The notes under the pieces: generated by a model | The model's input: the letters and a program-made list of their open reading frames with translations, nothing else | Database searches by the model: none | What the model was told of the DNA's origin: nothing | Source of the DNA: a virus | DNA: 29,168 bases | Reading direction: 5' to 3' (one strand) | IMG/VR virus record: IMGVR_UViG_3300006305_000063 | Coordinates: 1 to 29,168 of that record | Program-made: the position numbers and the translations under genes | Shown here: positions 131-25,700 of the stretch, piece after piece | Layout: each line of letters begins with the position of its first letter | How positions within the stretch are numbered: position 1 is the stretch's first letter

Positions 131-155
131 AGACCTCCTAAGCGAAAAGAGGTCT
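131..155 (-). terminator. Terminator-like hairpin that also holds the next gene's ribosome site
   Basis: In the minus-strand transcript, perfect 7-base arms AGACCTC and GAGGTCT enclose an 11-base loop and are followed at once by five T residues, the form of a rho-independent terminator. The loop contains the TAG stop of the 61-residue gene. The 3' arm overlaps the AGGAGGT ribosome site of the gene starting at 125. It could end transcription, hide the ribosome site, or both. The short stem (7 bp) and short T tract make termination uncertain. Confidence 0.5.
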
Positions 156-323
156 CATGTAGTCCTTGAACTCTTCGCATCTGTGCTTTGCTAGGACTTG
201 CATTTCTTTTTCTGTGATTACTATGTCGTAACCCTCTGCCTTCATCTCATCGTAGCATGCCTGTGCTACTCCTTTGTCTGTTAGGTCGTATTTGTGAAGT
301 GATACGTGCTTGAAGAATGACAT
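138..323 (-). CDS. Hypothetical protein, 61 aa
   Basis: A 61-residue charged protein beginning MSFFKHVSLHKYDLTDKG. It has no signal peptide or membrane span and no family I recognise. No Shine-Dalgarno is visible before the ATG; the leader from the putative promoter at 352-397 would be only about 20 bases. Its stop codon lies in the loop of the terminator-like hairpin at 131-155. It appears to be the first gene of a short unit that continues into the truncated gene at the left edge. The gene call rests on frame length, position and the promoter in front of it. Confidence 0.6.
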   Translation of the reverse strand: MSFFKHVSLHKYDLTDKGVAQACYDEMKAEGYDIVITEKEMQVLAKHRCEEFKDYMRPLFA

Positions 324-386
324 AAATGGTTTCTGAATTTGTTTATACTCTATTATTGCATTTTTTTATGCATAATGAAACCATTT
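324..386. repeat. 10-bp perfect inverted repeat flanking a promoter
   Basis: AAATGGTTTC at 324-333 and GAAACCATTT at 377-386 are perfect inverted copies separated by 43 bases. They bracket the -10 region of the putative promoter at 352-397 and end right at the ATG of the 61-residue gene. The half-sites are 53 bp apart centre to centre, about five helical turns. Operator half-sites are possible, but chance in AT-rich DNA cannot be excluded. Confidence 0.35.
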
Positions 387-397
387 GTGTGCCACTA
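352..397 (-). promoter_or_regulatory. Putative promoter 1 with TAGTGGCACA upstream element
   Basis: On the minus strand TAGTGGCACA (397-388) precedes an AATAAT -10-like box (357-352) by 30 bases. The -35 position (TTTCAT, 380-375) is poor. Two other intergenic regions carry the same ten-base element 29 bases before TATAAT (2012-2056, 3726-3770), and a variant occurs at 4022-4064. It would drive the 61-residue gene starting at 323. Confidence 0.45.
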
Positions 398-412
398 ATA
401 ATATCGGCACAC
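387..412 (-). other. Hairpin after the 44-aa gene stop
   Basis: The transcript can pair GTGTGCC (412-406) with GGCACAC (393-387) around a 12-base loop, directly after the stop of the 44-residue gene. There is no T tract, so it is not a classical terminator. It overlaps the TAGTGGCACA element of promoter 1. It may protect the 3' end, or be the chance result of the promoter element lying near a partial inverted copy. Confidence 0.35.
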
Positions 413-546
413 TATCTGTCTTTATCCTTCCTGATCCGTGTTATCTTTTTCTTATTGGACCTGTCTATATTCTTAATCTGATATCCATATGTGTTGAGAT
501 CGTCTGAATTGGCGTCTCCTTGGTCAATATTATACTTTTTAGGCAT
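412..546 (-). CDS. Small basic protein, 44 aa
   Basis: A 44-residue frame from ATG 546-544 to TAG 414-412, starting MPKKYNIDQGDANSDD and ending in a very basic tail with NKKKITRIRKDKDR. The start codon abuts the TAA stop of the 78-residue gene upstream (TAAATG), so translation is probably coupled. The lysine and arginine-rich C-terminus could bind nucleic acid, but that is only inference from charge. No family recognised. Confidence 0.5.
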   Translation of the reverse strand: MPKKYNIDQGDANSDDLNTYGYQIKNIDRSNKKKITRIRKDKDR

Positions 547-783
547 TTATTTCTCAGCGGGGACTAGTTCTCCTTCTTTTATACTGGCATGAAATAGTTT
601 ACCAACAGATTCCTCTTTTACCAAGGTCTGGACAAGCTTATTCTCGAATTTTTGTGGGTTTTCACACATAAATTCGTATTCTTTGTCGATATTTGTATTA
701 TATGTTGCAAATACTGACTTTTCGTCAATTCTTATAACATATAATGCCGAACTACCGAGGTTTTCGTAGGTTTTCACAAACAT
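547..783 (-). CDS. Hypothetical protein, 78 aa
   Basis: A 78-residue soluble protein beginning MFVKTYENLGSSALYVIRID, with alternating hydrophobic and charged residues typical of a small alpha/beta or all-beta domain. No membrane span or catalytic motif is visible and I do not recognise the family. No Shine-Dalgarno is present; the upstream leader is a T-rich tract (on this strand) made of degenerate 17-bp repeats. The 44-residue gene follows with no gap. A weak promoter-like TACAAT at 897-892 may drive the pair. Confidence 0.6.
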   Translation of the reverse strand: MFVKTYENLGSSALYVIRIDEKSVFATYNTNIDKEYEFMCENPQKFENKLVQTLVKEESVGKLFHASIKEGELVPAEK

Positions 784-883
784 TTAAAATTAAAAATTCT
801 TAAAAAACTCAGAATCTTAAAAAAATGACTTTTTTAACTTTCTGAAAAACTTAAAAAACTGAAAAAGTGACTTTTCTGTCTTT
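782..883. repeat. AT-rich degenerate tandem repeats, 17-bp period
   Basis: Consecutive 17-base blocks start at 799, 816, 833, 850 and 867. Blocks at 799 and 850 share CTTAAAAAACT; the block at 816 begins CTTAAAAAAA; the block at 833 matches the 850 block at 12 of 17 positions. The blocks at 782 and 867 are more diverged. The array lies directly upstream of the 78-residue gene. It may be a leader, a protein-binding array or simply slippage in A/T tracts. Confidence 0.4.
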
Positions 884-1106
884 CTGTAATAATTGTAGCA
901 CACCTCAGAGTGTTTTTGAGGGTTTATGCGGGTTTCGGGACATAAAGATATCCGCACTTGACATCTCATACATACCAGCCTAAGACGACAACTCTAGAGC
1001 ACCTTACCTATATTTAATTAATGATTAAGAATCAAAAGGATACTACCCTATACTACCTTATAATATCCCTTGGTATCACTGACGCTCTAACATCCGCAAA
1101 AGTACT
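784..1106. other. 323-bp gap between small genes
   Basis: No convincing gene. The gap holds the 17-bp repeats (to about 883), a weak minus-strand promoter-like site (TACAAT at 897-892 with CTCAAA 17 bases upstream), a possible 22-residue minus ORF at 905-973 beginning MYEMSSADIFM, and a short 10-bp tandem run (ATACTACCCT, ATACTACCTT, ATAATATCCC) at 1040-1069. I give none of these high weight. It is the largest non-coding stretch in the window. Confidence 0.5.
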
Positions 1107-1307
1107 CTAAAATCCTCCACCTCCACTCTTCCTCTTATCCACTACATCTACGTGAGAACACACCTCTGAAAACTGCATCCAAGTCTGTTTCATCTGACCA
1201 TAATCATCAAATACAATAGACCTACCATCAACAAAAGTTAACTTGTATTTGTGTCTATTGTATGGTTTATCTGATGTAAACTTATGTTCTTGTGTTGGTG
1301 TAATCAT
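1107..1307 (-). CDS. Conserved cyanophage-type small protein, 66 aa
   Basis: A 66-residue protein with KYKLTFVDGRSIVFDDYGQM near the middle, then SEVCSHVDVVDKRK and a GGGGF tail. The pattern of a KLTF-DGRS-VFD beta unit, an aromatic-rich middle, SHVDV and a basic, glycine-rich end resembles small proteins common in T4-like cyanophages; I recall the family but not a function. It starts with ATG 1307-1305, which overlaps the TGA of the upstream 48-residue membrane protein by four bases (ATGA). It is the last gene of a five-gene overlapping chain. Confidence 0.7.
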   Translation of the reverse strand: MITPTQEHKFTSDKPYNRHKYKLTFVDGRSIVFDDYGQMKQTWMQFSEVCSHVDVVDKRKSGGGGF

Positions 1308-1450
1308 GACTCTTTACAGTATGATGCATCTACTTGACATAGTTCATCGTATAGTCTTTGGTTTCTCTCACTTCTATCAATCTTAAGTGTTGTTCTTATC
1401 AGTGTCATAAAGAATAACCCTATGATGATATATGCTATGTAAGGTTTCAT
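1304..1450 (-). CDS. Membrane microprotein, 48 aa, N-terminal anchor
   Basis: A 48-residue frame from ATG 1450-1448 to TGA 1306-1304. Residues 4-18 (YIAYIIIGLFFMTLI) form one hydrophobic span, followed by a basic and then charged tail with two cysteines (residues 38 and 45). It overlaps both neighbours by four bases (ATGA) in the same operon, which strongly supports translation. Topology is probably N-out, C-in by the positive-inside rule. No family recognised. Confidence 0.6.
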   Translation of the reverse strand: MKPYIAYIIIGLFFMTLIRTTLKIDRSERNQRLYDELCQVDASYCKES

Positions 1451-1635
1451 TGTACTGTGTAACTCCAGTTGTTTGCTGATATGAATTCAAGTAGTTTAGC
1501 ACCTTCTTCGATGCTATAAACTACCTTCTCTCCTAGTTTACGATGTTGAGACATATTATTGTCTTCATACCATCTGATTGTAAACTTGTCTTGATTGCGA
1601 TTATACAAGAATTTATGGGGTTTTTTGGTTGTCAT
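1447..1635 (-). CDS. Hypothetical protein, 62 aa
   Basis: A 62-residue basic soluble protein starting MTTKKPHKFLYNRNQDKFTI. Residues 10-42 look like beta strands (FLYNRNQDKFTIRWYED, KLGEKVVYSI) and the C-terminal part like a helix (EEGAKLLEFISANNW). The ATG lies within the end of the upstream 48-residue membrane protein gene (23-base overlap), and its TGA overlaps the next ATG by four bases. Function unknown; operon structure supports the call. Confidence 0.6.
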   Translation of the reverse strand: MTTKKPHKFLYNRNQDKFTIRWYEDNNMSQHRKLGEKVVYSIEEGAKLLEFISANNWSYTVQ

Positions 1636-1759
1636 CGTTGAATGGGGATATAGTATATGCTCTGTTTGTCACATAATATAATACCAGTGTGAATAGTATC
1701 CCACCTAGTCCTATCCATAGTATAGGTGAGTGTGGGAAATCATATGTTGGAATGTTCAT
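1613..1759 (-). CDS. Membrane microprotein, 48 aa, single span
   Basis: A 48-residue frame from ATG 1759-1757 to TAA 1615-1613. A proline-containing N-terminus (MNIPTYDFPHSP) precedes one membrane span at about residues 13-31 (LWIGLGGILFTLVLYYV), then a short polar tail. The start overlaps the stop of the upstream gene by one base (TAATG) and the end overlaps the next gene by 23 bases. It has the same length as the membrane microprotein two genes downstream but no clear sequence match to it. Role unknown. Confidence 0.55.
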   Translation of the reverse strand: MNIPTYDFPHSPILWIGLGGILFTLVLYYVTNRAYTISPFNDDNQKTP

Positions 1760-1986
1760 TATACAGTACCTAGGTTTAAGTTCATGATGTCTCTGACTCT
1801 TTCTCTATCTAGTGAGTCTCCGTCTCCCCATGTCCAAGGATCGTCTGCTCTGAAGCATATCTCAAGATACTCTGCAGTTGCTTCTGCTATCTGTGGAATA
1901 GTTCTCTTGTTCTCTGGGTAGATACCATCTTTACCATAGAAAGAATGTACGTAGTCATAGAATGAGAAAAGTTGGTCTACTGTCAT
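1759..1986 (-). CDS. Conserved cyanophage-type protein, 75 aa
   Basis: A 75-residue acidic protein with FYDYVHSFYGKDGIYP near the N-terminus, an AEATAEYLEI helix, and GDSLDRERVRDIM near the end. The succession SFYG-GIY, an alanine/threonine/glutamate helix and GDS-DRE-VRDIM resembles a small protein that recurs in T4-like cyanophages; its function is not known to me. It is the first gene of a five-gene chain joined by overlaps of one to 23 bases. It lies 25 bases downstream of the -10 box of putative promoter 2. No clear Shine-Dalgarno. Confidence 0.7.
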   Translation of the reverse strand: MTVDQLFSFYDYVHSFYGKDGIYPENKRTIPQIAEATAEYLEICFRADDPWTWGDGDSLDRERVRDIMNLNLGTV

Positions 1987-2011
1987 GATAATGTTTGTTT
2001 GTTATGTACTT

Positions 2012-2056
2012 ATTATAGTCCATCTATGTGTATATGTGTAGTATCATGTGCCACTA
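2012..2056 (-). promoter_or_regulatory. Putative promoter 2: TAGTGGCACA-N29-TATAAT
   Basis: On the minus strand TAGTGGCACA (2056-2047) is followed by 29 bases and TATAAT (2017-2012). The -35 position 17 bases before TATAAT reads TACACA (4 of 6 to TTGACA). The stretch ACTATAATAAGTACATA around the -10 is identical over 17 bases at promoter 3. The upstream element encodes the last residues of the preceding gene. It should drive the chain starting at 1986. Confidence 0.6.
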
Positions 2057-2259
2057 TTCTTACTGGTTTCTTTTAACCACCAATAGTTGACATATGCTTT
2101 ATACTGATGTGACTTAAGTTTATGCTTACGTATGTGATCTTTCATACGTTCCTCGCCAAAATATTGATCGAACCATGCCTTGTTCAATCTGTCTGCTATT
2201 TCTGGCATTGGTTCAAAGTAATAGGGAAACTTATGTGCGATACCCATGTGTGGGAACAT
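2044..2259 (-). CDS. Hypothetical protein, about 71 aa, start uncertain
   Basis: The C-terminal portion of a longer open frame (open back to an ATG at 2478). I place the start at ATG 2259-2257 (MFPHMGIAHKFPYYFEPMPE) because the frame upstream of it overlaps the gene at 2294-2485, whose acidic, helical protein is more credible than the Ser/Thr/Lys-rich translation on this frame. Another ATG at 2247-2245 has AAGGA about 13 bases before it. The body is rich in aromatic and basic residues (RMKDHIRKHKLKSHQYKAYV). No family recognised. If the ATG at 2478 is used, the protein has 144 residues. Confidence 0.5.
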   Translation of the reverse strand: MFPHMGIAHKFPYYFEPMPEIADRLNKAWFDQYFGEERMKDHIRKHKLKSHQYKAYVNYWWLKETSKNSGT

Positions 2260-2293
2260 ATCCTTCTTACGTGATTGTATGATAGTGATCTTA

Positions 2294-2485
2294 CTAGATC
2301 TCGTCGTAGATGTCCCTGCCTTCGCTCTCTGAGTTGTAGTACTCTTCGAGGTGGTCTTGCCCTTTGTCGTTTGGGTTTTCCGAGTCGATGACACGTTGGA
2401 TTTCTTTTTTGATCTCGTCGTAGATGTTAACCCCTTGAGATTCTCCTTCAGTGCCTTCGCTGTGGTTGATTTTTTCATTTGTCAT
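2294..2485 (-). CDS. Acidic hypothetical protein, 63 aa
   Basis: A 63-residue very acidic protein with an internal repeat: NIYDEIKKEI at about residues 20-29 and DIYDEI at the end. The middle (DSENPNDKGQDHLEEYYNSE) is polar and probably flexible. The ATG overlaps the end of the upstream 42-residue gene. Most of the gene is also open in a second frame of the same strand (see findings). Codons in this frame end mainly in C, while the competing frame gives low-complexity sequence, so this frame is preferred. Function unknown. Confidence 0.5.
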   Translation of the reverse strand: MTNEKINHSEGTEGESQGVNIYDEIKKEIQRVIDSENPNDKGQDHLEEYYNSESEGRDIYDEI

Positions 2486-2603
2486 CGTACTGTTGTTCGT
2501 AATCGTACGCTTCCCTCACAACAACTGGAGCAACTACAAGATAAAACTCCTCCCACAGTTCAGTAGGATTAGGATGAAATTGTAGTTCCTCTTCATTTGC
2601 CAT
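2475..2603 (-). CDS. Small acidic protein, 42 aa
   Basis: A 42-residue frame from ATG 2603-2601 to TGA 2477-2475: MANEEELQFHPNPTELWEEF at the start, a short hydrophobic stretch YLVVAPVVV, then acidic YDYEQQYDD. It overlaps the upstream gene by 11 bases and the downstream ATG by several bases, consistent with the overlapping style of this block. The hydrophobic stretch is too short for a membrane span. No family recognised. Confidence 0.5.
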   Translation of the reverse strand: MANEEELQFHPNPTELWEEFYLVVAPVVVREAYDYEQQYDDK

Positions 2604-2757
2604 CGGTTAAACGTCTCAGTTGGTTGATCTCGTGTAGTATTCCCTCTGCCTTAGCGTCATCATCCGCATTCTTTGCTTTGATGTACGCTAGGACTAGATC
2701 TCTCATACTATCATCCACTTGTGAGTTCGAGGTAGGTTCGTTTGAGTTCTGTTTCAT
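2593..2757 (-). CDS. Small hypothetical protein, 54 aa, start uncertain
   Basis: With ATG 2757-2755 the protein has 54 residues (MKQNSNEPTSNSQVDDSMRD at the start). A later ATG at 2706-2704 would give 37 residues and begin just after the stop of the upstream gene. The core, MRDLVLAYIKAKNADDDAK followed by EINQLRRL, is a short helical segment of a kind I recall in cyanophage small proteins. Upstream codons reaching 2817 look like a shadow of the neighbouring gene. No strong ribosome site for either start. Confidence 0.5.
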   Translation of the reverse strand: MKQNSNEPTSNSQVDDSMRDLVLAYIKAKNADDDAKAEGILHEINQLRRLTDGK

Positions 2758-2962
2758 GTGAGTACAGTGTGTCTTCGTGCATCGCAATGTCTGGGTGTAA
2801 CCACTCAAAATACTCATCTGCTAGTGCCATAGCACGATTCATATCATTGTTTGCGATGTGCTCTTTAAACTTCTGCGTCATAATATCCATGATATCATCA
2901 CGTTGTTTAGAGATGCGTGCACGTTCGTTGTTAAAATCCTCTGGTGGCATTGTGTTGTTCAT
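2711..2962 (-). CDS. Hypothetical helical protein, 83 aa
   Basis: An 83-residue, mostly helical protein (NERARISKQRDDIMDIMTQK, then NNDMNRAMALADEYFEWLHP). The N-terminal half has heptad-like spacing and may form a coiled coil. It starts at ATG 2962-2960, overlapping the TGA of the upstream gene by four bases (ATGA), which fixes the start. No catalytic motif or membrane span. Function unknown. Confidence 0.6.
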   Translation of the reverse strand: MNNTMPPEDFNNERARISKQRDDIMDIMTQKFKEHIANNDMNRAMALADEYFEWLHPDIAMHEDTLYSHETELKRTYLELTSG

Positions 2963-3210
2963 CTTTTAGTTAGGAATAGTGTGTTGTTCAAATGATCATA
3001 TTGCTTAAACTCTACGTCCTTAGGTAACATGGATACTGCAGCTGCAGCAAACTCGTTAGGAAATTTACGGAACATTCTCCAAAATTTCTTCTCTTCGTCC
3101 ATGTCTAGTTCTTCACGTGGTAGTACACGCAACTCATACTCTCCCTTAGTGTATCTAAGACGAGGGTATGGTTGAATGAACTCTTTGATGTGATCAGATA
3201 GAAGATTCAT
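2959..3210 (-). CDS. Hypothetical protein, 83 aa
   Basis: I start this gene at ATG 3210-3208 (MNLLSDHIKEFIQPYPRLRY), 32 bases after the upstream stop; the frame extends back to a TTG inside the neighbouring gene but that part is a shadow. The protein has a beta-like segment (TKGEYELRVLPREELD), then a helical segment (EEKKFWRMFRKFPNEFAAAA). The last codons overlap the next ATG by four bases. Family not recognised. Confidence 0.6.
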   Translation of the reverse strand: MNLLSDHIKEFIQPYPRLRYTKGEYELRVLPREELDMDEEKKFWRMFRKFPNEFAAAAVSMLPKDVEFKQYDHLNNTLFLTKR

Positions 3211-3242
3211 GTGTGTATGTATAAGAGTACATGGTGGGTGGA

Positions 3243-3698
3243 TTATCTCATATAGAGATAACCTCCTGCCCAACCTACGTTTTTGTAATCAAATAGAAAC
3301 TCTCTATCCTTTCTCTCTAATAGATTGTATCTTACGTGCTTCGCAGGTTTTGCCCATCCTGCGGGTTTGTATACATCTCCTGTCTCTCTGTCTATGAATG
3401 CGTGTACTGAACCATTTCTGTACTCATTAGTTGGATTAGGACCCATGTCATCAAACTGTTGCTGTACGATCTTAAGATACTTACGTCCTTTCTGTATCAC
3501 ATACTTGTAAAGGTTAGCAGTATCGTTCTCGATCTCTTCGATTCTCTTTGCTGCGTAGATGCTGTATCCTTCTCTCATCTGCATTGCTCTGTATGAATCA
3601 AGTGAGTCTTGCTTGAAGTTCTCTTCTAGAGTCTCACATAGTGTCTGTGCGTACTCTTCGATGTTTGCCATTTCTTGTTGTAATAGTGCTGTGTTCAT
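3243..3698 (-). CDS. Conserved cyanophage-type protein, 151 aa
   Basis: The N-terminal 80 residues are helical with glutamate and glutamine-rich coiled-coil character. The C-terminal part holds VHAFIDRETGDVYKPAGW, then AKHVRYNLLERKDREFLF and the end WAGGYLYMR. A terminal unit of this kind (FIDR-TGDVYKPA-W, PAKHVRYNL, WAGGYLY-R) is one I recall from T4-like cyanophage proteins with no assigned function. The ATG is preceded by a good AGGAG nine bases upstream, and by putative promoter 3. It heads the operon that runs to about 2044. Confidence 0.75.
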   Translation of the reverse strand: MNTALLQQEMANIEEYAQTLCETLEENFKQDSLDSYRAMQMREGYSIYAAKRIEEIENDTANLYKYVIQKGRKYLKIVQQQFDDMGPNPTNEYRNGSVHAFIDRETGDVYKPAGWAKPAKHVRYNLLERKDREFLFDYKNVGWAGGYLYMR

Positions 3699-3725
3699 GA
3701 GTGGTGCTCCTTTGTGTATGTACTT

Positions 3726-3770
3726 ATTATAGTCGATATAAACTACGTTTCTACCTCTCTTGTGCCACTA
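3726..3770 (-). promoter_or_regulatory. Putative promoter 3: TAGTGGCACA-N29-TATAAT
   Basis: TAGTGGCACA (3770-3761) is followed by exactly 29 bases and TATAAT (3731-3726) on the minus strand, matching promoter 2 in both sequence and spacing. The -35 (GTAGAA) is poor. The leader to the ATG at 3698 is about 20 bases and contains AGGAG. A 13-base sequence just upstream (GAGTAGACAGTTA, 3786-3774) recurs upstream of promoter 4. Confidence 0.6.
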
Positions 3771-3780
3771 ATATAACTGT

Positions 3781-3957
3781 CTACTCGTATGATTCTAGCA
3801 TCCTCTCTAGTTTAGCGTAGAGTCTAGAGTGTGTTGAATGATAGTCACCCATCATCAGATTCATAAGATACTTGATCTCTGTAAGAGTGAATGTGTCTTT
3901 CATTGTTACCTCATCTGGTGTGATAGTAACAGGCATTCTAGGATACTTTTTCTTCAT
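3781..3957 (-). CDS. Small helical protein, 58 aa
   Basis: I choose ATG 3957-3955 (MKKKYPRMPVTITPDEVTMK); an upstream TTG at 3987 would add ten residues but is less likely. After a short N-terminal segment with a threonine/proline/acid-rich middle, the C-terminal half (LTEIKYLMNLMMGDY to LERMLESYE) is a helical hairpin with many methionines. It stands alone between promoter 4 and promoter 3, with a leader of about 60 bases and no clear ribosome site. Function unknown. Confidence 0.55.
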   Translation of the reverse strand: MKKKYPRMPVTITPDEVTMKDTFTLTEIKYLMNLMMGDYHSTHSRLYAKLERMLESYE

Positions 3958-4021
3958 TGTCAAGTGTAATAGGGTGCGAGAAAACAAACCTAGAAATTAA
4001 TCTGGTTGTTTTCCCACTATT

Positions 4022-4064
4022 ATTATAACGCATAAAAATCCCCTGTGCAAGAGATTGTTACACT
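4022..4064 (-). promoter_or_regulatory. Putative promoter 4: near-consensus sigma-70 plus upstream element
   Basis: TTGCAC (4050-4045), 17 bases, TATAAT (4027-4022) on the minus strand is a near-consensus housekeeping promoter. AGTGTAACA (4064-4056) lies 28 bases before TATAAT, a variant of the AGTGGCACA element at the other sites (7 of 9 bases). It should drive the 58-residue gene. Confidence 0.65.
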
Positions 4065-4079
4065 TTCCTAACTGTCTAC

Positions 4080-4093
4080 TCCGCAATTGCGGA
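4080..4093. repeat. 14-bp perfect palindrome TCCGCAATTGCGGA
   Basis: A perfect palindrome just after the stop of the 111-residue gene. As RNA it can form a five-pair stem with an AAUU loop, without a T tract. It may be a weak terminator, a processing site or a protein-binding site. It adjoins the repeated GAGTAGACAGTTA sequence. Confidence 0.4.
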
Positions 4094-13712: not shown

Positions 13713-16700
13713 TTATACCTCCATTAACCACCAACCTTGTACGCTAGTTGGTATGCCTATTTGATCATTACTATCAACAGATCCAAGATATACGAGTGCA
13801 AATCCAGCATTAGGAGTTTGAACTACAAGTTCACCAGATGGATATGGAGTTAATCTATCTCCAAATAGTGTTCCTGATGAGTCACCTTGTATTGGTGTTC
13901 CACTTGTCTCAGGAGTTCTAACAACTAATGTTGTATCATACTTCAAGTTACCACCCACATCAATCATTCTTACAATATCACCTGTTTGTGGTGCAGCTGG
14001 TAGTGTAACGATCAATGTTTGTGTTGCTTGTACGTTTACCATGTAAACTATATTTGCAATCAGTATTAGATCTGCTTCTGGTGATGCTGCTGATAAGTAT
14101 CTAGTATGCCTTGCACCAGTTGATGTAGTGAAGTTTTGTAATCCAAATGCATCAATCGAACGATTCTGCTTGATAGTGTATTCACTACCACCATTTATTC
14201 CAAGATTCTGTACTGAGAATACATCAGCACCTGTTGGAGTTAATGTTGGAGTACCTGTTATTGTCAGTGTTTTCTGAGCAGTTACATTTCCTAAGTTATC
14301 TACTGAGAATGATGGTTCACATGCTAATGATGTAATAACATTCTCTGGGCAAGATGTTGGATATAAGAACAAGTCACCTCTTGCTATCACACCAGCATCC
14401 CAGTTAATTAGACCTGAGTGATCAGCATGTCCGTCATCGTTAACAAACTGGAATAATTTAGTTTGTTTAACACTATCATAAATTGTGAAGTTACCACCAG
14501 TTAATGTTAGATTGTCTGTTACATCCAATCTACCATTTCTGTATGACTTAGCACCATCACCAAGTTGCTCATTCATCTGGGTTGTATGAGTCTTACCATA
14601 CAATCTACCGTTTACATGAGTTAGTATCTCAACACCAGTGGTTGTGTTTCTAAATCTTAACCACTGTTTGTAATCTAGTTTCTGTTGTGAGATATATCCT
14701 CTCTCTATTATTACAGAGAGATAATCAGCATTTACACCAGCAACTGATCTTTGTCTAATTTGAGCATCAATTACACTAGATTGTGTTTCATGTTTGATAA
14801 TTCTTCTAACAACATCACCAACACCATGACTCATTGCGACTGTTCCTTCTTGCTCTCTTGTAGCAATAATGGTAGGAAGTCCACCAGTGTTCACAATTGT
14901 GTCAATCTTCATTATCTCAATTTGACCAGTAGTACCAGAGAATGATGCTAAAGGTCCTACAGCGATTAGATCACCAACTGCAAACGTACCAGTTCCTTCT
15001 CCAAGTTGTTGTACTGGAATCTGTAATAAAGTTGCACTGTTACCAGCAGCAGTCGCTGATGCTATTGTTGTGTTAGGACCATTTGCCTGTATTGACTGTG
15101 GATCTGCGTAGTAACCATATGCTATTATTTCATCTGCATTCAATGCTGTTGGTAAATCAGCATTTGTAAGAATACCAGCAGCACTTGACCATGCTAAGTT
15201 AAGATCAAACCTACCAGCATGAGATCCAATTATTGTTGATCCTGAGCATGAATCAACATCAAATGTAGGATTGTCATTACCATCATTGATGGTAAATCTT
15301 TCATTCCTATTTGCTTTGAATGTAGTTCCTGATGTTTGTTGAGAACCAATTATATTGGTTGTTAAGTAGATAGCACCGCCAAAGATAAAGTCAACAGCAG
15401 TATCTTGATCCATCGAGAGTGGTGATGAATCTGTTACAACATTGATAACATCGCCCTTCTTAATATCAGAAAGTGATTTGCCAGGAGATGTGACAGTTAC
15501 ATTTGTAATAACCTTCGTTCCAGCGTTTGCATCTCCAGTAAATGTTATAGAACTCAATGTTCCACAACCACCATCCATATCAAGAGATGAGTTGATTGTT
15601 ACGATTGAACCAGGTATATTTGGATTACCAATCTGTACCTCACCAGTTACAGAGTTAATTACGAATACATCCTCATCTGGATCAGCACAATTAGAAACTC
15701 TAAATTTCTGCTGTTGCTCTGCAAGAGGTGAAATAACCTTAATATATTCTGGAACTTTTGGTGAATCATTTCTATCAACAATGATGTAATCATTATTTGT
15801 TAGATTACCACCAAATTCAGATAAGTATATTGGATCTGTTGCACTGGTATCATTATCAATTGCTTGCTCTGTCCACGTAGCATCAAACTGTACATTAACT
15901 TTGTATATTGGTGTAGTGTCAGCATGGTTACTTAATACACCACCAAATGCACCGAATGGACGTCTCTTGACTTTAACATAGTATGGTGCTTCACTTATTC
16001 TTGTAAGTTCTACAATTTGTACTATTTCTGGATGACTGGTTGCGGATGATCCTGTACCAACAACTGCACTATCAACAATAATATAATCATTAGTTCCAAA
16101 GTATGGAGTACCATCATTCTTTATTGGTTGTAATTTAAGTGGTAGATAGTATTCATCTCCAGTTATCGCTGGTAGAATAATAGGTTCAACTGTTCCACCA
16201 GTATCAGTTTGACTCTGGTATGCTGTTCCACCCCATAGTCCTGCACCAGCAGTATCAATTGCGTTGTATCCTTCTTCATTTGTTTGTTTAACGAGTACAT
16301 TTAAGATGTCAACGTTCTTATTGAATAGTGACTGTGATATAATTCCATCTTCATGTGCAACTATATCTGTTCCTAACTGTGCTCTTCCACCAGTAAATGC
16401 GAATGATGCAACACCACCACACATATGTACATCACCATTGAACTTAGCAGATGCTATAACTTCTAACTGGTTGTTGATAGTAGTTGTACCACCCTGACCA
16501 GCAATGTTAATTTCAGATGCATTTAAAGCAAAGTTGATTATCGAAGGACCACCAGTGTTAGAGAAGAAGTCAACTTGTGATGCTTGTGATTTAAGTGATG
16601 TAGTTTCACCAAGTCCCTTACGGAATCCTAACCATGCATCACCATCAATTCTCAAGTTTCTAGTCTTGATCTTGGTGTATGATAAATCTTCGTTTTGATT

Positions 16701-19700
16701 TGCAAATGCACCACCAATTTCCACCTTAGAAATGCTAGTACCAGCACTGTCAGGTGTTGCACCTAACCATATGTTACTATGTGCAGATCCACGAGCAATA
16801 TGTACAAATTGATCTGCTGTAGTATCATTGAATAAGTATGCAGTTGTTACTTCACTACCAAAGTTAACTGTACCAACAAATGTAGCATCATCTATTAAGT
16901 TAAATGTTCCTGTTGTCTGCGATGTTCTAATCTCAGCAATGACTCCATCATCACCATTAACTTCAATGTCATGCTCAAACTTAGCATCATCTGTAAATCT
17001 AGATAAACCATTAACAACTAACGCTCTATCTAAGTTAGCATTACCTATATTAATACCAACACGACCACTATTTGTAGTTGCTATTCTGAATACTGAAATA
17101 TCGTTAGGAGCAGAACTATCACCACCAACTAAGAATGCGTTGTCAACAGCAGTCTTATCACGATCAGCAAACTGTGTATGCTGTAAGAAGTCAGCAGTTG
17201 TTCTACCACTGATGAATGCTGTACCAACAACATCTAAGTTAGCACGTGGATCTGTTGTAAGGTTATCAACAAATGCATTTTGATATGCACTATGTGGTGC
17301 TCTTGCAACTGTGTTAATACCTAACTTGTAATCACCAATAGTCTCTGTCTCTGTTCTTAGTGCCTCACCACCTAGTACACCAACTTCTTTGAAGTTAGAG
17401 TTGGAGAACTCAATGGTAGGAGCAACAGCACCTTGTGCAGTTCCAGCAATAATTGATTCCCATGCTTCTGTTGCTTGTGGAATCTGATCAATAACTTGGA
17501 AATGAACGTAGTTATTTGTTGGTGAGAATGGATCGCCAGGTTTAGCAGCATATACTTGCCATGTTAGATTTAATCTAGGATCATAATAGAAGTTGTTAAT
17601 TCTAATCTGTGATGAAGATGTAATTCCAACTTCTGTATTTGAAAGAGCAACGCCACTGTTAAAGTCTCTAAACTCTAGTTTAACGACGTTAGATCCATCA
17701 AACACGATGTTATCAATACTGTTATTGGCAATTTGTGAGAAGTAGTTAGCAAGAATCCATGCAACTGATCCACTCTTACCAATTTCCTCACCCTTAAACA
17801 ATACATCGCCTGTTCTAGGAATTACACCACCATAAGTGACAAACTGTGCAGAATTAATTCTAGATCCGCCGTCTACAATTAGTGGAGATTGGTTTGGTGT
17901 AATATTAGAAGCAACACCTTGTATGGTATGTGTCTGGAACATATATCCCTGACCATTACCTCTAGAATTAAACTGGAATACAGCAGCTTTGACTGTGTTC
18001 TTACTAATTCTAACATCACCTTCAGTAGGAGGTGAGAATGATGTTCTATCTAATCCCTCATCTTGTTCTAACTGTGTAACTGGATCAACAGATGTGACAT
18101 TTGAACGAATAATTAAAGCATCACGTGCCTGTGTAAGATCAGAATCTTGAACAGCAATAGTAACAGGTGATTCAAATGTATTGACTAACTCACCATCACC
18201 ACCAACAACTGTGATGTTTTGGTTGAATGTAACAGGAGTATCGAATGTAGTAACTAATCCTCCTAGTGTATCATCCTCATCTCCATCATCTTCGAGTGTT
18301 GCTCTATCAATGAATGTCTCTTCACCAGTGATAGCATTGATTCTTCTGTTACCAATATACAAGTCACCTTGTGAGTTGATACCAGTGTAGAATACAATAC
18401 CACCATCTTGTTTCTTGGACTGTGCGTAGAAGTCCTCATCAGGTGTGAGTACAACTTCTTGTCTTGCTGGTAGACCAGTTGAGTAGTTACCTGGACCGAA
18501 ACCGAGGTATTCAAATGTGTGGTTTCCTGCTCTTGCGATAGATGGTCGTCTAAGTTCGACATAATATCTCGTATCAGTTATTGATACATCACCGCTACCA
18601 CCAATTGGTATCTTTCTTTGTTCAGATCCAGATGCAGCATTACCACTTTGTGCTTGTATTGTATATGTTCTATCAATAAACGCTGGTTGCTCTGTCAAGT
18701 CAGTAACCATTTCTCTAGTTGTTGATCCTTTGAAATCGTTGACTGTAACAGAACCATGTACATAGTTATCAGCAGCAGAGTATGCTTGTGGTGGATCAAT
18801 TAATCCAGCATAGTAATCTTTCTCTTTCTGTGTTGTACCAGAGTTGTTGAACCAAAGAGGATCATTTCTATAGTTCAGAGGATATAGTTTACCGACTGGT
18901 TGAGAGAACTTAAATTTCTTGAAGTTATTAGTGATACCAGCACCAGTTGGGAATGGTGAAATATTACCACGTAATGCAGTTAGATAGTAAATACCATCTT
19001 GCTGACCTGATATACGTTGCTGTAATGTCTCGTATCCAAAGATATAGAATGTGTCTTCGATAACTCCTGCATCTTCAACACTATCAACATAGTATTCTAC
19101 ACCAGCGTCATCTTGAATTGTATCGCCAGGTGTGATTGTGTAAACATTCGCACCGTTTTGCTTGTAGAAAAACTGGGGATTATTTTTTGCAATTTGTGTT
19201 TTTAGAGGTAGAGATTTGCCCATATCCTGATCCTCTAGCATGTCAGCGAAGACTGTGCCTTGAGTGAATCTTGTATTAGCATATTCACTATACTCTAGAT
19301 CACCACCACGAATATTCTTAATGATGAGATAATGTTCACCATTTATTGTGTAATATGCATGAATATTTGCAAGACCTGATGAGTTACCAGCAAATGAAAC
19401 TGCGTTAGTAGATGATGCAACATTATCTACCTTGCTAGTAATAAAGATTCCACCTTGTGGTGATGTAATCTTGACTGTAGTAAATGTCTCGTTTCTTAAG
19501 CCAGGAAAGTTCTTAGTATCTACACCGTGATCAAACACTGTAAGTTCTAAGTATTCAATACTCTCATCTAATATGTCCTTAATTTTACGTCCAGATTGAA
19601 TTGTTGCTTGAATACCAGATGAGAATCTAGCAAATGAACGGTATTCAATACCAGCACCTGTTGTATCTCTTTTAAATGGATCATATGTTCCAGTTGTATC

Positions 19701-22700
19701 ACCAATAAATTCACTAGCATCAACTGGGTTCTGGAATCTAGCACCGTAGACTGTGCCAACGACTGGTTTCAATAGAACTTTCTGTGGTACTAACTTACGT
19801 GTATCATCAGTCCTAGTTTTGATTACAAATCCATTGATTGGATCTCTTGCATTTTGTAGGTAACTAGGAATAACCATACGAATTTTGTATGTTCTTTCAT
19901 CCTTATCACGATTATCTTCTAAACGCTGATACCACATATCAGTGGATCTTTGTCTGTCTGCATAATCTGACTCGCCAATTCTCCAGAAAATATTATTTTT
20001 ATAGACACTTGGTGCATTACTATTAATATCTCCTTCATTCTTACATTGAATGTACCACTTACCATTTGCTGCAGTAGCGTTTGTAAAACCAGGATCAAAC
20101 TTCATTGGTGAACGACGTTTGTTAGCATAAACAAAGAACTTAGTTCCACTCTGTCCAGATGCAAACGTGATTGGATTTACATTGTTGATAGCATCAGCAT
20201 GTGTTTTGTGTATTGTAAGTACCTTACTGTTTTGATAACGAGTGAAGAACTCAACATTAGGATTGATTCTACCAATCGCAGCATTTTGTGGGTCAATGAC
20301 TGCAACCTGTGGATCATTTGCATATGTTGTAGCAACTAGAGGTAGTAAACCACCTTCTACAGGTCTGATGAATGCTTTCTGTGGAGTTGTTCCTGCGTTT
20401 GGTATGTCAAATATATGTGAAACGTTGGTCATGATACCAGCATTCACTGTATTTGTTAACTCTGCAGTATAATTGTGTAGATCGTACTTGTCATCAAGTA
20501 CAAACTGGTATAGATCAATTTCAACATCTTTGTCTATACTATCTGTTTCAGATGCATAGATGTAGATACCAGCAGCAGCATTTTCTTTGGATGTTGCAAG
20601 CATTAATCTAGTTTGATCACTACCATTGAATATTGTAGTTGCACCATAGTTTTCTGGTTGTGTAACTCTACCTGGTGCGATTACATAATATGTTCTGTTA
20701 GTCTCAAATCCATTTGGTAGTCTGACAAGACGCTTGTCTACATCAACATACTTACCAGTTACTTGATCAAAACGGGGTCTTGGAACTAATCTTACGGGAG
20801 TTCCAGTCTCAAAGTCATGTGGGTTGGAAGGACCTGTACCAGCAACGTCAATTGTGAATAGTGTTGCTCTAGATGATAACAGTGCTGTATTGACTGTCTG
20901 TTCTTGTCTGGTGACTGTACCAAGACCACTGTTGATAATAGTTGTGATGTTACCAACTAATGTTTCAATAGCATTTGCTGTTCCTGCACACTCTCTATTT
21001 GTTGGTGATACTGTACTGTCAGCAATGACTTGAGGACCTTCTGACTCAGGACCCACAGTCACAGTATTTGGTAATGTGTCTGCCCAGATACCTTTCTCAT
21101 ACTTGAAGTATAGATCAACAGTTGTGCTATTCTGTAATGCATTTACAGTCACACCCTCATTTAATCTAGAACCATTGACACCAAGTTCAACCTGTGTGTT
21201 ACTTACAATTTTCTTGACGTAAGTTCCTTCTGGTATTGTTGTATAAACTGGAGTTGGACTGTTACCTAGTAAACCTGGTGCATTGTCTCCATCACGATAT
21301 GATCCAGCAGTGTATTCAACAACACTCATACCTATGATAATACCACGAGTATCATTGACATCTATGATTGCAGAACCAGAGTTAGTTGTACAATTATATG
21401 CTAGAACATCGAAGTTTCTCATGGCAGCAGTTGCCATTTGTCCAACATAGTTCCATGCATCTAATGTTTCTGTCTTTTCTCCATCAATATACTCTAGGTT
21501 GTTACCAACATAGTATGCTTCACCAGCCTGTATACTGTTTAAGTTACCACCAAGTCTAAGGTCATTAACAATAGCATCAACAATATATGTAACGTCACGG
21601 AAACACTTGGATGCTTCATTATTGACTGTAAAGTCACCAGTGTTTAGTGGAGGTAAACCAGCGAGAGTTCCACCACCAATAGCGTCATTCAATATATCAA
21701 ATAATGTCTCGATAGATGAACGAACGTTAGCACAATCCCACTCACCAGTGCTTAGTGGAGGTAGATTATCTAAGTTACCATCATTAATAGAGTTGCTAAG
21801 AATATCAATCAAAGCATTGACTGTTGCACAAACATCAGAGCAGTTACCTTCTTGATATGCAGTTGGTTGATACTTACCAGCAGATCTTGGATATGCATGT
21901 GATGTCTTGTTCTGATCCTTGGTACATGTAAAGATGAGTGACTCTTCCTTAAGTCTAATTGATGTTCCAGTTGGTAAAGTATGGTTACCGATAGTCAATG
22001 CTAGAGAACCAGTTACTTGATCATAAACAGCGTTAGTAACATTAAATTCAACTAGAGGAGACGCACCAACATTAATACTGATACTATAATCTGTAACAGC
22101 AGTTGGGTTTACATTCTGTCCACTGATTGGATCACTTGTTCTAGGATATGTCTTACTAGAACTGTTCTGATCCATAGAACATGTAAATGTTAATGAATTA
22201 GCATCTATAGAAATCTGATCACTGGTAGTTACGCCATGCTTAGATCCAAAGTATAATACCATTATACCTGTAGTTGCATCATATGTTGCATTAGCTGGTG
22301 TTAGTTGACCACCATTTAATACATTGACTGCATTGGCGTTAGCACTTACGAATGTGTGGTCATAGTTACCACCAGATACAACTGCTCCTGACTGTGCAGC
22401 AACAAATGTATGGGCGTATTGTTCACCCGCTGGTGAAGGACCTACATTAACTGTAAGAGAAGTTGCAGTTGTAGATATAATGTTTAGTGCAGTATTCCAA
22501 CCAGGATCTGCACCATCAGCAGTTGTTCTTTGTATGCCATCAAGATTACCAACACCAGCATCAGTTCCGATTGCTTGTATGATAATATCCATTAAACTAT
22601 CAACAGCAGCAACAGCTGAACCACACTTAGGTAGTAGTTCTTCAGCATCCCAGTCATCAACAATTGTATTGTCAATGATCTGTGTTAGATTATTACCAGA

Positions 22701-25700
22701 AGAAACAGTTACTGCTTCATTCTTGATAACCTGTATCGCAATGTTTTTAACTTCTTGGAATACTTTTGCAACCTCATCTCTTTCTACATCTTGAATGATT
22801 TGTGGATATGTTTTACCATTGAAGTCGTTAGTGATATAACCTTTAGCAACAGAGTATGTCTTGTAGTTACCACCAAACTTGACATCCCACATTACCTCAC
22901 GTAGAACATCATATACATCATCCAAACAATCTTGTGCTGTATTTCCTGTAGATGGTGTGTATGATGGATATGCTGCCTTCATTCTCTCATATGCTTCTTT
23001 AGCAATGAAGAGTTGGTTAGCGATAACCTGATCATGTGCATCACACTCAATGTCTCCAACAATAGGAGGATCACCAATAGTGTCAAGTGTAATGTTTAGA
23101 TCACGATCATAGTATTGGTTGTTCAATGCACGTTCCATCAAATCTTCTGCACGTTTAAATGCTGTGATAGATGGTGCTACCTCATTGTCTACGCCATTAG
23201 CAATGAGTTGGTTACCTTTGAAGTATTCTTTTGTAGATGCAATAGTAAATTCATTACCACCAAACCAAAGGTCTTGTGCTACAGCATCAACAACAATACC
23301 TATATCTCTACGACATTTAGCTTCGCCAGGTATTAATGTTCCCTCGTTAACTGGTTGATTCCAGATACCACCTGTGATATTACCAGCAGCAATTGCATCA
23401 GTAACAATAGTTCCTAGTGTGTCAATAGCAGACTGTACATCAGAACATGCACTTGAACTTGTCCTGCTTGTAATTGCTGAGTTTTGTTTTCTGACTGCAT
23501 TGGTTGTTGCTGATACAAATGTATGAGCATAGTTACCACCAGCAATGACTGCTCCAGCTGTTGCTGATACAAATGTATGTGGATCAGTGTTTGTAGATGG
23601 AACAGTTGTTAATACTTGAAGTGTAATTGTAGTTCCTGTTACTGACTCAATGTTTATTGCAGTATCATAGAATGGATCATTACCATTTGCTCTAGGATAT
23701 GACTTCTCTGCAGCAGAACCAGTGGCACCACCAAATCCACAACTGAATGTCAATGACTCAGGTGCTAACTTGATAGATGTACCAGCAGTCAAATCATGAT
23801 TACCGATCTCAAGAACCATCAATCCTGTATTAGGATCATATGTTGTTCCTGTAGTTGGTGTGTATGTTACGATAGGTGATGTGCCTACGTTAACTTCAAA
23901 TGTGTCATTAGTTTTATTAGCAACAGTCAACCATGTATTAAATGTTGGGTCGGTTGGTCTTGGATATGTTTTCTGTGATGTGTTACCATCCATTGTACAT
24001 GTCATTACCAATGAGTTTTCTAAGATCTTAACTTTATCTCCGTTTGCAAGACCATGACCACCAATAGTTACTACAAGAACACCAGTAGTCGCATCATAAG
24101 TCACGTTAGTAGGAGTTCCCACATCAGTTGTTGATCCAGCATAAGTAGATCCACCTTCTGTGACTGTTAAATCTTTATAGTACAACTGGTTAGTAATTGC
24201 CTTCTTCATCTCGTTAAGGGCAGTGTTGTATGCAGTTATACTTTCTGCCTCTTCACCTTGTAAACCATTTGGTAATGGTGTGGTAGCGTTAGTGAAGTAT
24301 TGCTCTGTGTATTCTCTGGTATGCTTGTTACCTTCGTGATACATGTCAACTGAGATAGCATCAATAAAGTATCCCAAGTCACGAGCACATTTGATTTCAC
24401 CAGGTCCTCTACCAGTACCATAGTTAACTTCTATTGGCATGGTGCTAAGGTTGCCATTAGCAAGAATAGTCGTAATGATACTTGTTAATGAATCAACAGC
24501 AGACTGTACATCAGAACATAAGAACTGTTGAGCATTAGTTAATTCATTCTCAGTGTTACCACCAAAGTTGACTGCATTGGCACTTGCACTTACAAATGTA
24601 TGTGTGTAGTCACCACCAGATGCTACTGCGTTAGCGTCAGCACCAGCCCATACGTGAGTATATGTTCCACCAGTCTTGACTGAGTTTGCAAGAGCACTTA
24701 CGAATGAGTGAGTTGTAGTGTTAGAAGATACACCAATGAATATCTTAATAGTTCCAGACTGCTTAAGTAAACCATTAGCAGTAGCACTTACAAATGTATG
24801 TGCATATTGATCGTTAGGACCAGAAATACCTACGTTAACCTCAAATGTATCATTTGTTTTGTTAGCAACAGTTAACCACTCATCATATGATGGGTCTGTT
24901 ATACGTGGGTAACTATGATTTGATGTGTAATTATCTTTTGAACAAGCAAATGTTAGAGATCCTAATTCAAACTTAACCTTGTTACCATTTGAAAGACCAT
25001 GACCAGCACTGGTAATTACCATAACACCAGTAGAAGAGTTATATGTTGCACCAGTTACTGTAGCAGTTGTACTAGGAACTTCTTCAACGTAGATAGAATT
25101 ATCATAGAATGGGTCTTTCTTATATGATAAACCATTTGTAGTAGCACTTACAAATGTATGAGTAGTAATATTTGTAGATGGAATATTATCTAATACTTGT
25201 ACTTGGAATGTATTTGTCTGTACATTGAATATCTTTAACCACTTATCACTTACTGGGTCAGTTGATCTTGGATATGTATGATTAGTAGCATTACTATCTT
25301 CTAAACAAGTAAATGTCAATGAATCATCTGCAAACTTAACCTGTTCATTGTTTTTCAATCCATGGTTTGCAATAGTAATTTCCATTACACCAGTCTGTGG
25401 ATCGTAGTCAGCACCTGTTACAGTTGCAGTCTCTATAGTAGATCTAGGATAACTGTGATTAGTTGCGTTACTATCTTGGTCACAAGTAAATGTTACAGCA
25501 CTATCTGCTAACTTAATGCTATCTCTTGGGAATGTAACACTATTAGCAGCAGCAGAAACAAATGCATGTGGAGTTTGGTTTGTAGATGGAGTTGATGCCA
25601 ACACCTGTACATCAAATGTATTCTGAGTTACATTTGAAATGGGGATCCACATTCCACTAACTGGGTCAGTAGAGCGAGGATATGAATGGTTAGTAGCATT

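What the first reader, a model, noticed from the sequence alone, without database searches (positions are those of the whole stretch)
352..4064. A shared upstream promoter element (TAGTGGCACA) at fixed distance from the -10 box in four intergenic regions
Three minus-strand promoters (397-352, 2056-2012, 3770-3726) have the identical ten bases TAGTGGCACA 29-30 bases before TATAAT or AATAAT. A fourth (4064-4022) has AGTGTAACA 28 bases before TATAAT. The first three have poor -35 boxes, so the element sits where an activator could act (about -50 to -42). T4 MotA boxes lie near -30 and differ in sequence, and NtcA sites are GTA-N8-TAC, so this does not match known sites I can name. It could be a phage-specific regulon.
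Basis: partly seen in the sequence, partly recalled or inferred. Interest (0 to 1): 0.65.

Follow-up and report, generated by a model that had tools for sequence, protein, structure and literature searches.

The report
Cyanophage early-type promoters with palindromic operator
Four switches in front of small genes of a marine cyanobacterial virus share a palindromic DNA site used by the whole virus family, and a closely similar site sits in front of a porin gene of the host Prochlorococcus, so the virus may turn on its genes by borrowing a host activator.

Summary
TAGTGGCACA occurs three times in the window, always on the minus strand, 29-30 nt before a -10 box and shortly before a start codon; a fourth, variant copy lies 28 nt before TATAAT. 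None of 400 simulated windows held three copies. The decamer is one arm of a 24-bp palindrome, TGTGMCASTT-N4-AASTGKCACA, centred near -53.5. Palindrome plus -10 is strongly enriched in five marine T4-like cyanophages (10-31 high-scoring sites each, 0.6-2.6 expected) and absent from T4 and Ma-LMM01. It marks a family-wide class of activated sigma70-type promoters, very probably the 'novel regulatory element' of early cyanophage genes of Doron et al. 2016 (recalled abstract; text not held, so unverified). The window's copies are therefore new members of a probably known class. What I could not find reported: a dyad of the same geometry, with the same tolerated substitutions (C/G and G/T), is conserved 89-91 nt before the start codon of a porin gene in 23 of 30 Prochlorococcus promoters collected without reference to it. 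This suggests a hijacked host activator. No protein was identified, no transcription start was mapped here, and marine Synechococcus hosts show no comparably strong site.

The parts
388..411 (-).
   Evidence: left arm 7/10 to TGTGMCASTT
352..357 (-). -10 box AATAAT of promoter 1, gap 30; predicted +1 near 345
   Evidence: +1 placed by the YAT signal seen 12-13 nt from the -10 T in 97 aligned sites
138..323 (-). ORF downstream of promoter 1, 61 aa, phrog_19379, unknown function
2047..2070 (-). Operator 2: GAAACCAGTAAGAATAGTGGCACA (left arm weak, 5/10)
2012..2017 (-). -10 box TATAAT of promoter 2, gap 29; predicted +1 near 2005, leader about 19 nt
1759..1986 (-). ORF downstream of promoter 2, 75 aa, phrog_7799, unknown function
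3761..3784 (-). Operator 3: GTAGACAGTTATATTAGTGGCACA (best-scoring copy in the window)
   Evidence: score 45.3
3726..3731 (-). -10 box TATAAT of promoter 3, gap 29; predicted +1 near 3719, leader about 21 nt containing AAAGGAG
3243..3698 (-). ORF downstream of promoter 3, 151 aa, phrog_818 / Pfam DUF7717, unknown function
4056..4079 (-). Operator 4 (variant): GTAGACAGTTAGGAAAGTGTAACA
   Evidence: score 24.2
4022..4027 (-). -10 box TATAAT of promoter 4, gap 28; predicted +1 near 4015
3781..3987 (-). ORF downstream of promoter 4, 68 aa from TTG (in-frame ATG at 3957), phrog_34877, unknown function

Best explanation
Each copy is the operator of an activator-dependent sigma70-type promoter: a 24-bp palindrome at about -65 to -42 (axis about -53.5), a weak -35, a good -10 box, initiation at an A in YAT, and a short leader to a small ORF. 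A dimeric DNA-binding protein sits just upstream of the -35 region and helps host RNA polymerase start transcription of the phage's small, mostly uncharacterised genes, probably early in infection. The protein is more likely a host regulator already present in the cell than a phage product; in Prochlorococcus its own target would be a porin gene. Shown here by sequence: the sites, the palindrome, the fixed spacing, the restriction to marine T4-like cyanophages among the phages tested, and the conserved host dyad. Inferred: that they are active promoters, that they are early, that the site activates rather than represses, and that one protein binds both phage and host dyads.
For: Window copies beat chance. 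Among IMG/VR contigs found with the decamer plus TATAAT, gaps pile up at 28-30 nt (100 of 119). The left arm TGTGMCASTT is present (at least 7/10) in 70 of 98 sites with gap 28-30, against 1 of 89 when the gap is set to 12-18 nt and 0 of 79 for the reversed decamer; only one arm spacing is conserved. Palindromes collected without using any -10 box have TATAAT at 28-30 nt downstream in 24 of 122 cases and on the other side in 10, with almost none at other distances. A model trained on IMG/VR only finds, at score 16, 10/18/19/31/28 sites in Syn9/ACG-2014h/P-TIM40/P-SSM2/S-PM2 against 0.6-2.6 for shuffled models, and 0 in T4 and 1 in Ma-LMM01. In Syn9 the sites lie at the 3' end of one gene and just before the next, co-oriented, mostly in the gp55-gp93 cluster of small genes. 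54 of 69 sites have an ORF start within 60 nt of the predicted +1 (median 20 nt) against 32% and 13% for random places on the same and opposite strand. Host: in 30 Prochlorococcus porin promoters fetched by their leader sequence alone, 23 carry the dyad with at most 4 mismatches at 89-91 nt from the ATG (reversed control best 6-9 mismatches); column profiles of phage and host dyads correlate at 0.75, against at most 0.29 at any other offset and at most 0.54 in 5000 column permutations.
Against: No transcription start, expression time or binding protein was measured or could be read here; the Doron 2016 text was not held. The host left arm is TGTAYAA rather than TGTGMCA. The host dyad is 47-52 nt from its candidate -10 box rather than 29. 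In whole host genomes essentially one recurrent promoter site is seen, an odd regulon for a host regulator. Marine Synechococcus, hosts of Syn9 and S-PM2, show nothing above control (WH7803: 1 site vs 4 control at 3 mismatches; its genus: 2 of 31 genomes, control hits in 6). A second recurrent Prochlorococcus match (TGTGGTAGTTGCCCAAGTAGCACT) shows that a match once present recurs through homology.
Confidence: 0.6

Rival explanations
1. Same promoter class, but the palindrome is bound by a phage-encoded activator, either carried in the virion or made first from a few activator-independent promoters. The porin resemblance is then convergence or chance.
For: The palindrome is dense in phages and nearly absent from host genomes (277 of 300 Cyanobiaceae genomes have no match at 2 mismatches), and no strong site was found in marine Synechococcus, which are nonetheless hosts.
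Against: GerE/LuxR-type domains are absent from all five cyanophages and the one Syn9 gene labelled 'transcriptional regulator' next to phoH has no Pfam match, though other DNA-binding folds were not surveyed. If the promoters are the first to fire, a newly made phage protein would come too late unless packaged. The conserved host dyad is unexplained.
Confidence: 0.25
2. The palindrome is a repressor operator that shuts these genes off later in infection, not an activator site.
For: Palindromic operators are common for repressors (general knowledge); nothing in the sequence proves activation.
Against: It sits at -65 to -42, upstream of the core promoter rather than over it, at one fixed distance, and the -35 is weak (only 3 of 72 sites match TTGACA at 5-6 positions), the pattern expected for activation.
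Confidence: 0.1
3. A known site: T4 MotA box, NtcA, Pho box or a CRP-type site.
For: TGTG...CACA ends recall CRP sites; cyanophages do carry predicted NtcA and Pho boxes (PMC3037559).
Against: MotA boxes lie near -30 and marine T4-like cyanophages lack T4-like middle promoters and motA and/or asiA (PMC5780444); NtcA is GTA-N8-TAC and Pho CTTA-N7-CTTA in PMC3037559; CRP half-sites TGTGA/TCACA are 6 bp apart, here TGTG and CACA are 16 bp apart.
Confidence: 0.03
4. Chance repetition or a duplicated intergenic block.
For: Sites 2 and 3 share a longer stretch around the -10 (GACTATAATAAGTACATA), so some shared descent or common core-promoter preference is possible.
Against: Simulations, the fixed spacing in other contigs and the cross-genome enrichment with negative T4 and Ma-LMM01 scans.
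Confidence: 0.01

Closest known systems
Early-gene regulatory element of T4-like cyanophages Syn9 and P-TIM40 (Doron et al. 2016, ISME J 10:1437; recalled from abstract, text not held)
   Same: Same phage group; the element found here is dense in the Syn9 small-gene cluster and in P-TIM40, and conserved across T4-like cyanophages as that abstract says.
   Different: I could not read its sequence or position, so identity is inferred. The palindrome, the axis at -53.5 and the host porin dyad are from this work and may or may not be in that paper.
T4 middle promoters (MotA box plus sigma70 -10, with AsiA)
   Same: Activator site plus -10 with a poor -35, host RNA polymerase.
   Different: MotA box is a short site near -30, bound by phage MotA; here a 24-bp palindrome at -65 to -42, and marine T4-like cyanophages lack motA and/or asiA (PMC5780444).
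Class I/II CRP-type activation
   Same: Dimeric operator upstream of a weak promoter; TGTG/CACA outer bases.
   Different: Arm spacing and dyad length differ; axis at -53.5 is neither -41.5 nor -61.5.
Prochlorococcus porin (MKLFKSLLVAPATLGLLAP...) promoter dyad, described here
   Same: 24-bp dyad, same N4 spacer and the same C/G and G/T tolerated positions.
   Different: Left arm TGTAYARSTT; 47-52 nt to the candidate -10; one site per genome.

Membership tests
Marine T4-like cyanophage palindrome promoters (class defined here) | 24-bp dyad TGTGMCASTT-N4-AASTGKCACA | tested here: met
   Right arm TAGTGGCACA exact in three copies and AAGTGTAACA in the fourth; left arm 7/10, 5/10, 7/10, 7/10
Marine T4-like cyanophage palindrome promoters (class defined here) | -10 box 28-30 nt downstream | tested here: met
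   30, 29, 29, 28 nt
Marine T4-like cyanophage palindrome promoters (class defined here) | Intergenic, followed by an ORF start within about 60 nt | tested here: met
   ORF starts at 323, 1986, 3698, 3957; promoters 1-3 have leaders of about 19-22 nt, promoter 4 about 58 nt
Syn9 early element of Doron et al. 2016 | Same sequence and position as the published motif | not testable with these tools
   Paper not held
Syn9 early element of Doron et al. 2016 | Occurs upstream of Syn9 and P-TIM40 genes and is conserved in T4-like cyanophages | tested here: met
   P-TIM40 19 sites, Syn9 10 sites at score 16
Syn9 early element of Doron et al. 2016 | Drives genes expressed early | not testable with these tools
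   No gene-level expression data held; early, middle and late classes exist in P-HM2 (PMC5082946) but the gene lists are in supplements
T4 MotA middle promoter | MotA box near -30, with motA/asiA in the phage | tested here: not met
   Element lies at -65 to -42; lack of motA and/or asiA in marine T4-like cyanophages is from PMC5780444, not tested here
NtcA or Pho box | GTA-N8-TAC or CTTA-N7-CTTA | tested here: not met
   The dyad consensus contains neither; consensi from PMC3037559

The most novel reading that the evidence does not exclude
Marine T4-like cyanophages switch on their small-gene promoters with improved copies of a host operator: the phage palindrome is bound by a host activator whose own conserved target in Prochlorococcus is a porin promoter, so the phage starts its programme with a pre-existing host transcription factor.
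Probability: 0.5. Interest if true: 0.8.

Novelty: new member of a known kind. Interest (0 to 1): 0.6.

Why it matters
T4-like cyanophages are abundant ocean viruses, lack T4-type middle control, and the protein that recognises their early promoters is, to my knowledge, unknown. A defined 24-bp palindrome and a matching conserved host promoter turn this into a direct experiment: pull the protein out of uninfected Prochlorococcus with either DNA. If it is a host activator of a porin, phage gene expression would be tied to host outer-membrane regulation.

Tried and rejected
A direct TAGTGGCACA-plus-TATAAT search in Syn9 looked nearly empty until the intergenic regions were read and the palindromic consensus with looser -10 was used. 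A model refined on the isolates drifted to palindromes without -10 boxes and reports both strands of each dyad, so enrichment is quoted from the unrefined model. A match inside nrdA of Syn9, with a similar one in S-PM2, is within a coding region and ignored. GerE/LuxR candidate in the phages: none. Host-wide regulon: only the porin promoter recurs, apart from one other recurrent match whose context was not examined. Other Cyanobiaceae porin promoters show only weak dyads, mostly 4-6 mismatches. My notebook entry of '26 of 30' porin promoters was a miscount; the table gives 23 of 30 with at most 4 mismatches. Rfam: no family in the window. Paper searches for a held account of the motif or a porin link found none.
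Full report
What the window is. The record is a 29168-base virus contig. Its proteins match cyanophage-type tail-fibre, tail assembly and small unknown families, and its first 6 kb aligns only to Synechococcus and Prochlorococcus phages and cyanophages, best to ACG-2014h. The left end carries small ORFs on the minus strand; the rest is structural genes.

The observation. TAGTGGCACA occurs exactly three times, all on the minus strand, at 397-388, 2056-2047 and 3770-3761, with 30, 29 and 29 nt to AATAAT, TATAAT and TATAAT. A fourth, variant copy at 4065-4056 has 28 nt to TATAAT. Simulated windows contain 0.10 copies on average, none of 400 contained three, and no other repeated ten-mer in the window has three copies in front of a -10 box at this distance. 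All four sites point into short ORFs (61, 75, 151 and 68 aa) of unknown function; promoters 1-3 have leaders of about 20 nt.

It is a palindrome. A scan of IMG/VR for the decamer followed by TATAAT at 26-32 nt gave 119 stretches, gaps peaking sharply at 29 and 30. Aligning 97 distinct sites revealed a second arm upstream, TGTGMCAGTT, at a single spacing. Sites from five isolate genomes, not selected on the exact decamer, give TGTGMCASTT-N4-AASTGKCACA, a true 24-bp palindrome. With the -10 box at -12 to -7, it spans about -65 to -42, axis about -53.5. A +1 signal (A 77%, T 75% at the next base) follows the -10 at the expected place and the leader is A-rich. The left arm is present in 70 of 98 sites, against 1 of 89 and 0 of 79 in two controls, and palindromes found without reference to a -10 box have TATAAT at 28-30 nt and almost nowhere else.

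Who has it. A two-part model trained only on IMG/VR contigs scores 10, 18, 19, 31 and 28 sites in Syn9, ACG-2014h, P-TIM40, P-SSM2 and S-PM2 (0.6-2.6 with shuffled models) and 0 and 1 in T4 and Ma-LMM01 (1.1 and 1.7 expected). In Syn9 the sites lie between genes, co-oriented, mainly in the run of small genes gp55-gp93, with others before gp32, the gp150 peptidase and cobS. Syn9 prefers GGTGGCACA or AAGTGTCCAC arms and TATTCT or TATACT -10 boxes, which is why an exact-decamer search nearly misses it. 54 of 69 IMG/VR sites start an ORF within 60 nt of the predicted +1. In 20 of 72 sites the 28-30 nt between palindrome and -10 fold into a hairpin well below shuffled energy, some followed by T runs, so the terminator of the preceding gene may be built into the promoter (the terminator reading is inference).

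A host counterpart. In 300 Cyanobiaceae genomes the palindrome is almost absent (277 with none at two mismatches), but several exceptions in Prochlorococcus fall at one place: upstream of a porin-like gene encoding MKLFKSLLVAPATLGLLAP... ('porin' is from the signal sequence and general knowledge of picocyanobacterial porins). To avoid choosing sites by the motif, I fetched 30 promoters of this gene by the conserved leader next to the start codon. 23 of 30 carry a dyad TGTAYARSTT-N4-AASTGKCACA with at most 4 of 18 positions wrong, always 89-91 nt from the ATG; the reversed pattern is never better than 6. Sequence upstream of it has diverged. The right arm varies as AAGTGGCACA, AACTGGCACA, AACTGTCACA, AAGTGTCACA, the same C/G and G/T choices as in phages, and the column profiles correlate at 0.75 against at most 0.29 at other offsets. 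The position was chosen among five neighbouring ones by best match, a small bias. With the relaxed dyad, 18 of 61 Prochlorococcus genomes match and no control does, nearly all at the porin. In marine Synechococcus no such site was found, and other porin promoters show only weak dyads.

Reading. The phage sites are almost certainly promoters of one class with a dimeric activator site (about 0.9). That the activator is a host protein is my preferred reading (about 0.5-0.55): a regulator must be on hand when the first genes fire, the host has a conserved dyad of the same geometry, and no phage regulator of the one type checked is present. Against it: the host regulon looks like a single gene, its left arm and promoter distance differ, and Synechococcus hosts lack a strong site.

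Known or new. From memory, the abstract of Doron et al. 2016 reports a novel regulatory element for early genes of Syn9 and P-TIM40, conserved in T4-like cyanophages, with host-like middle promoters. Held papers that cite it confirm early, middle and late classes and the lack of T4-like middle promoters and motA and/or asiA (PMC5780444, PMC5082946), but the paper itself was not held. The element here is very probably that one, so the window's copies are new members of a known class. I found no held paper linking it to a host porin promoter.

Noticed in passing
IMG/VR sites such as L009, L012, L008, L044, L045 (gap between palindrome and -10): Hairpins, often GC-rich and sometimes followed by T runs, fill the -41 to -13 region of about a quarter of these promoters, as if the upstream gene's terminator were nested in the promoter.
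   Followed up: partly
Prochlorococcus porin promoters L349-L378: Conserved 24-bp dyad 89-91 nt from the start codon of a porin gene, same geometry as the phage operator.
   Followed up: yes
window 3957-4015, minus strand: The leader of promoter 4 is about 58 nt and contains an apparent inverted repeat (GAAAACAACC ... GGTTTGTTTTC), unlike the other three short leaders.
   Followed up: no
window 4080-4093: Perfect 14-bp palindrome TCCGCAATTGCGGA directly upstream of operator 4.
   Followed up: no
window 13713-29126, minus strand: One ORF of 5137 aa fills half the contig; by size it recalls the giant putative fibre gene of Syn9 (gp101, 60762-78992).
   Followed up: no
window 784-890: A/T-rich repetitive stretch (AAAAACT/GACTTTT) upstream of ORF 547-783, within a match to phage S-B43 that covers 560-886.
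   Followed up: no
Prochlorococcus genomes, e.g. G337:C1:433905, G068:C2:229962: Second recurrent weak match TGTGGTAGTTGCCCAAGTAGCACT in many Prochlorococcus genomes; context not examined.
   Followed up: no
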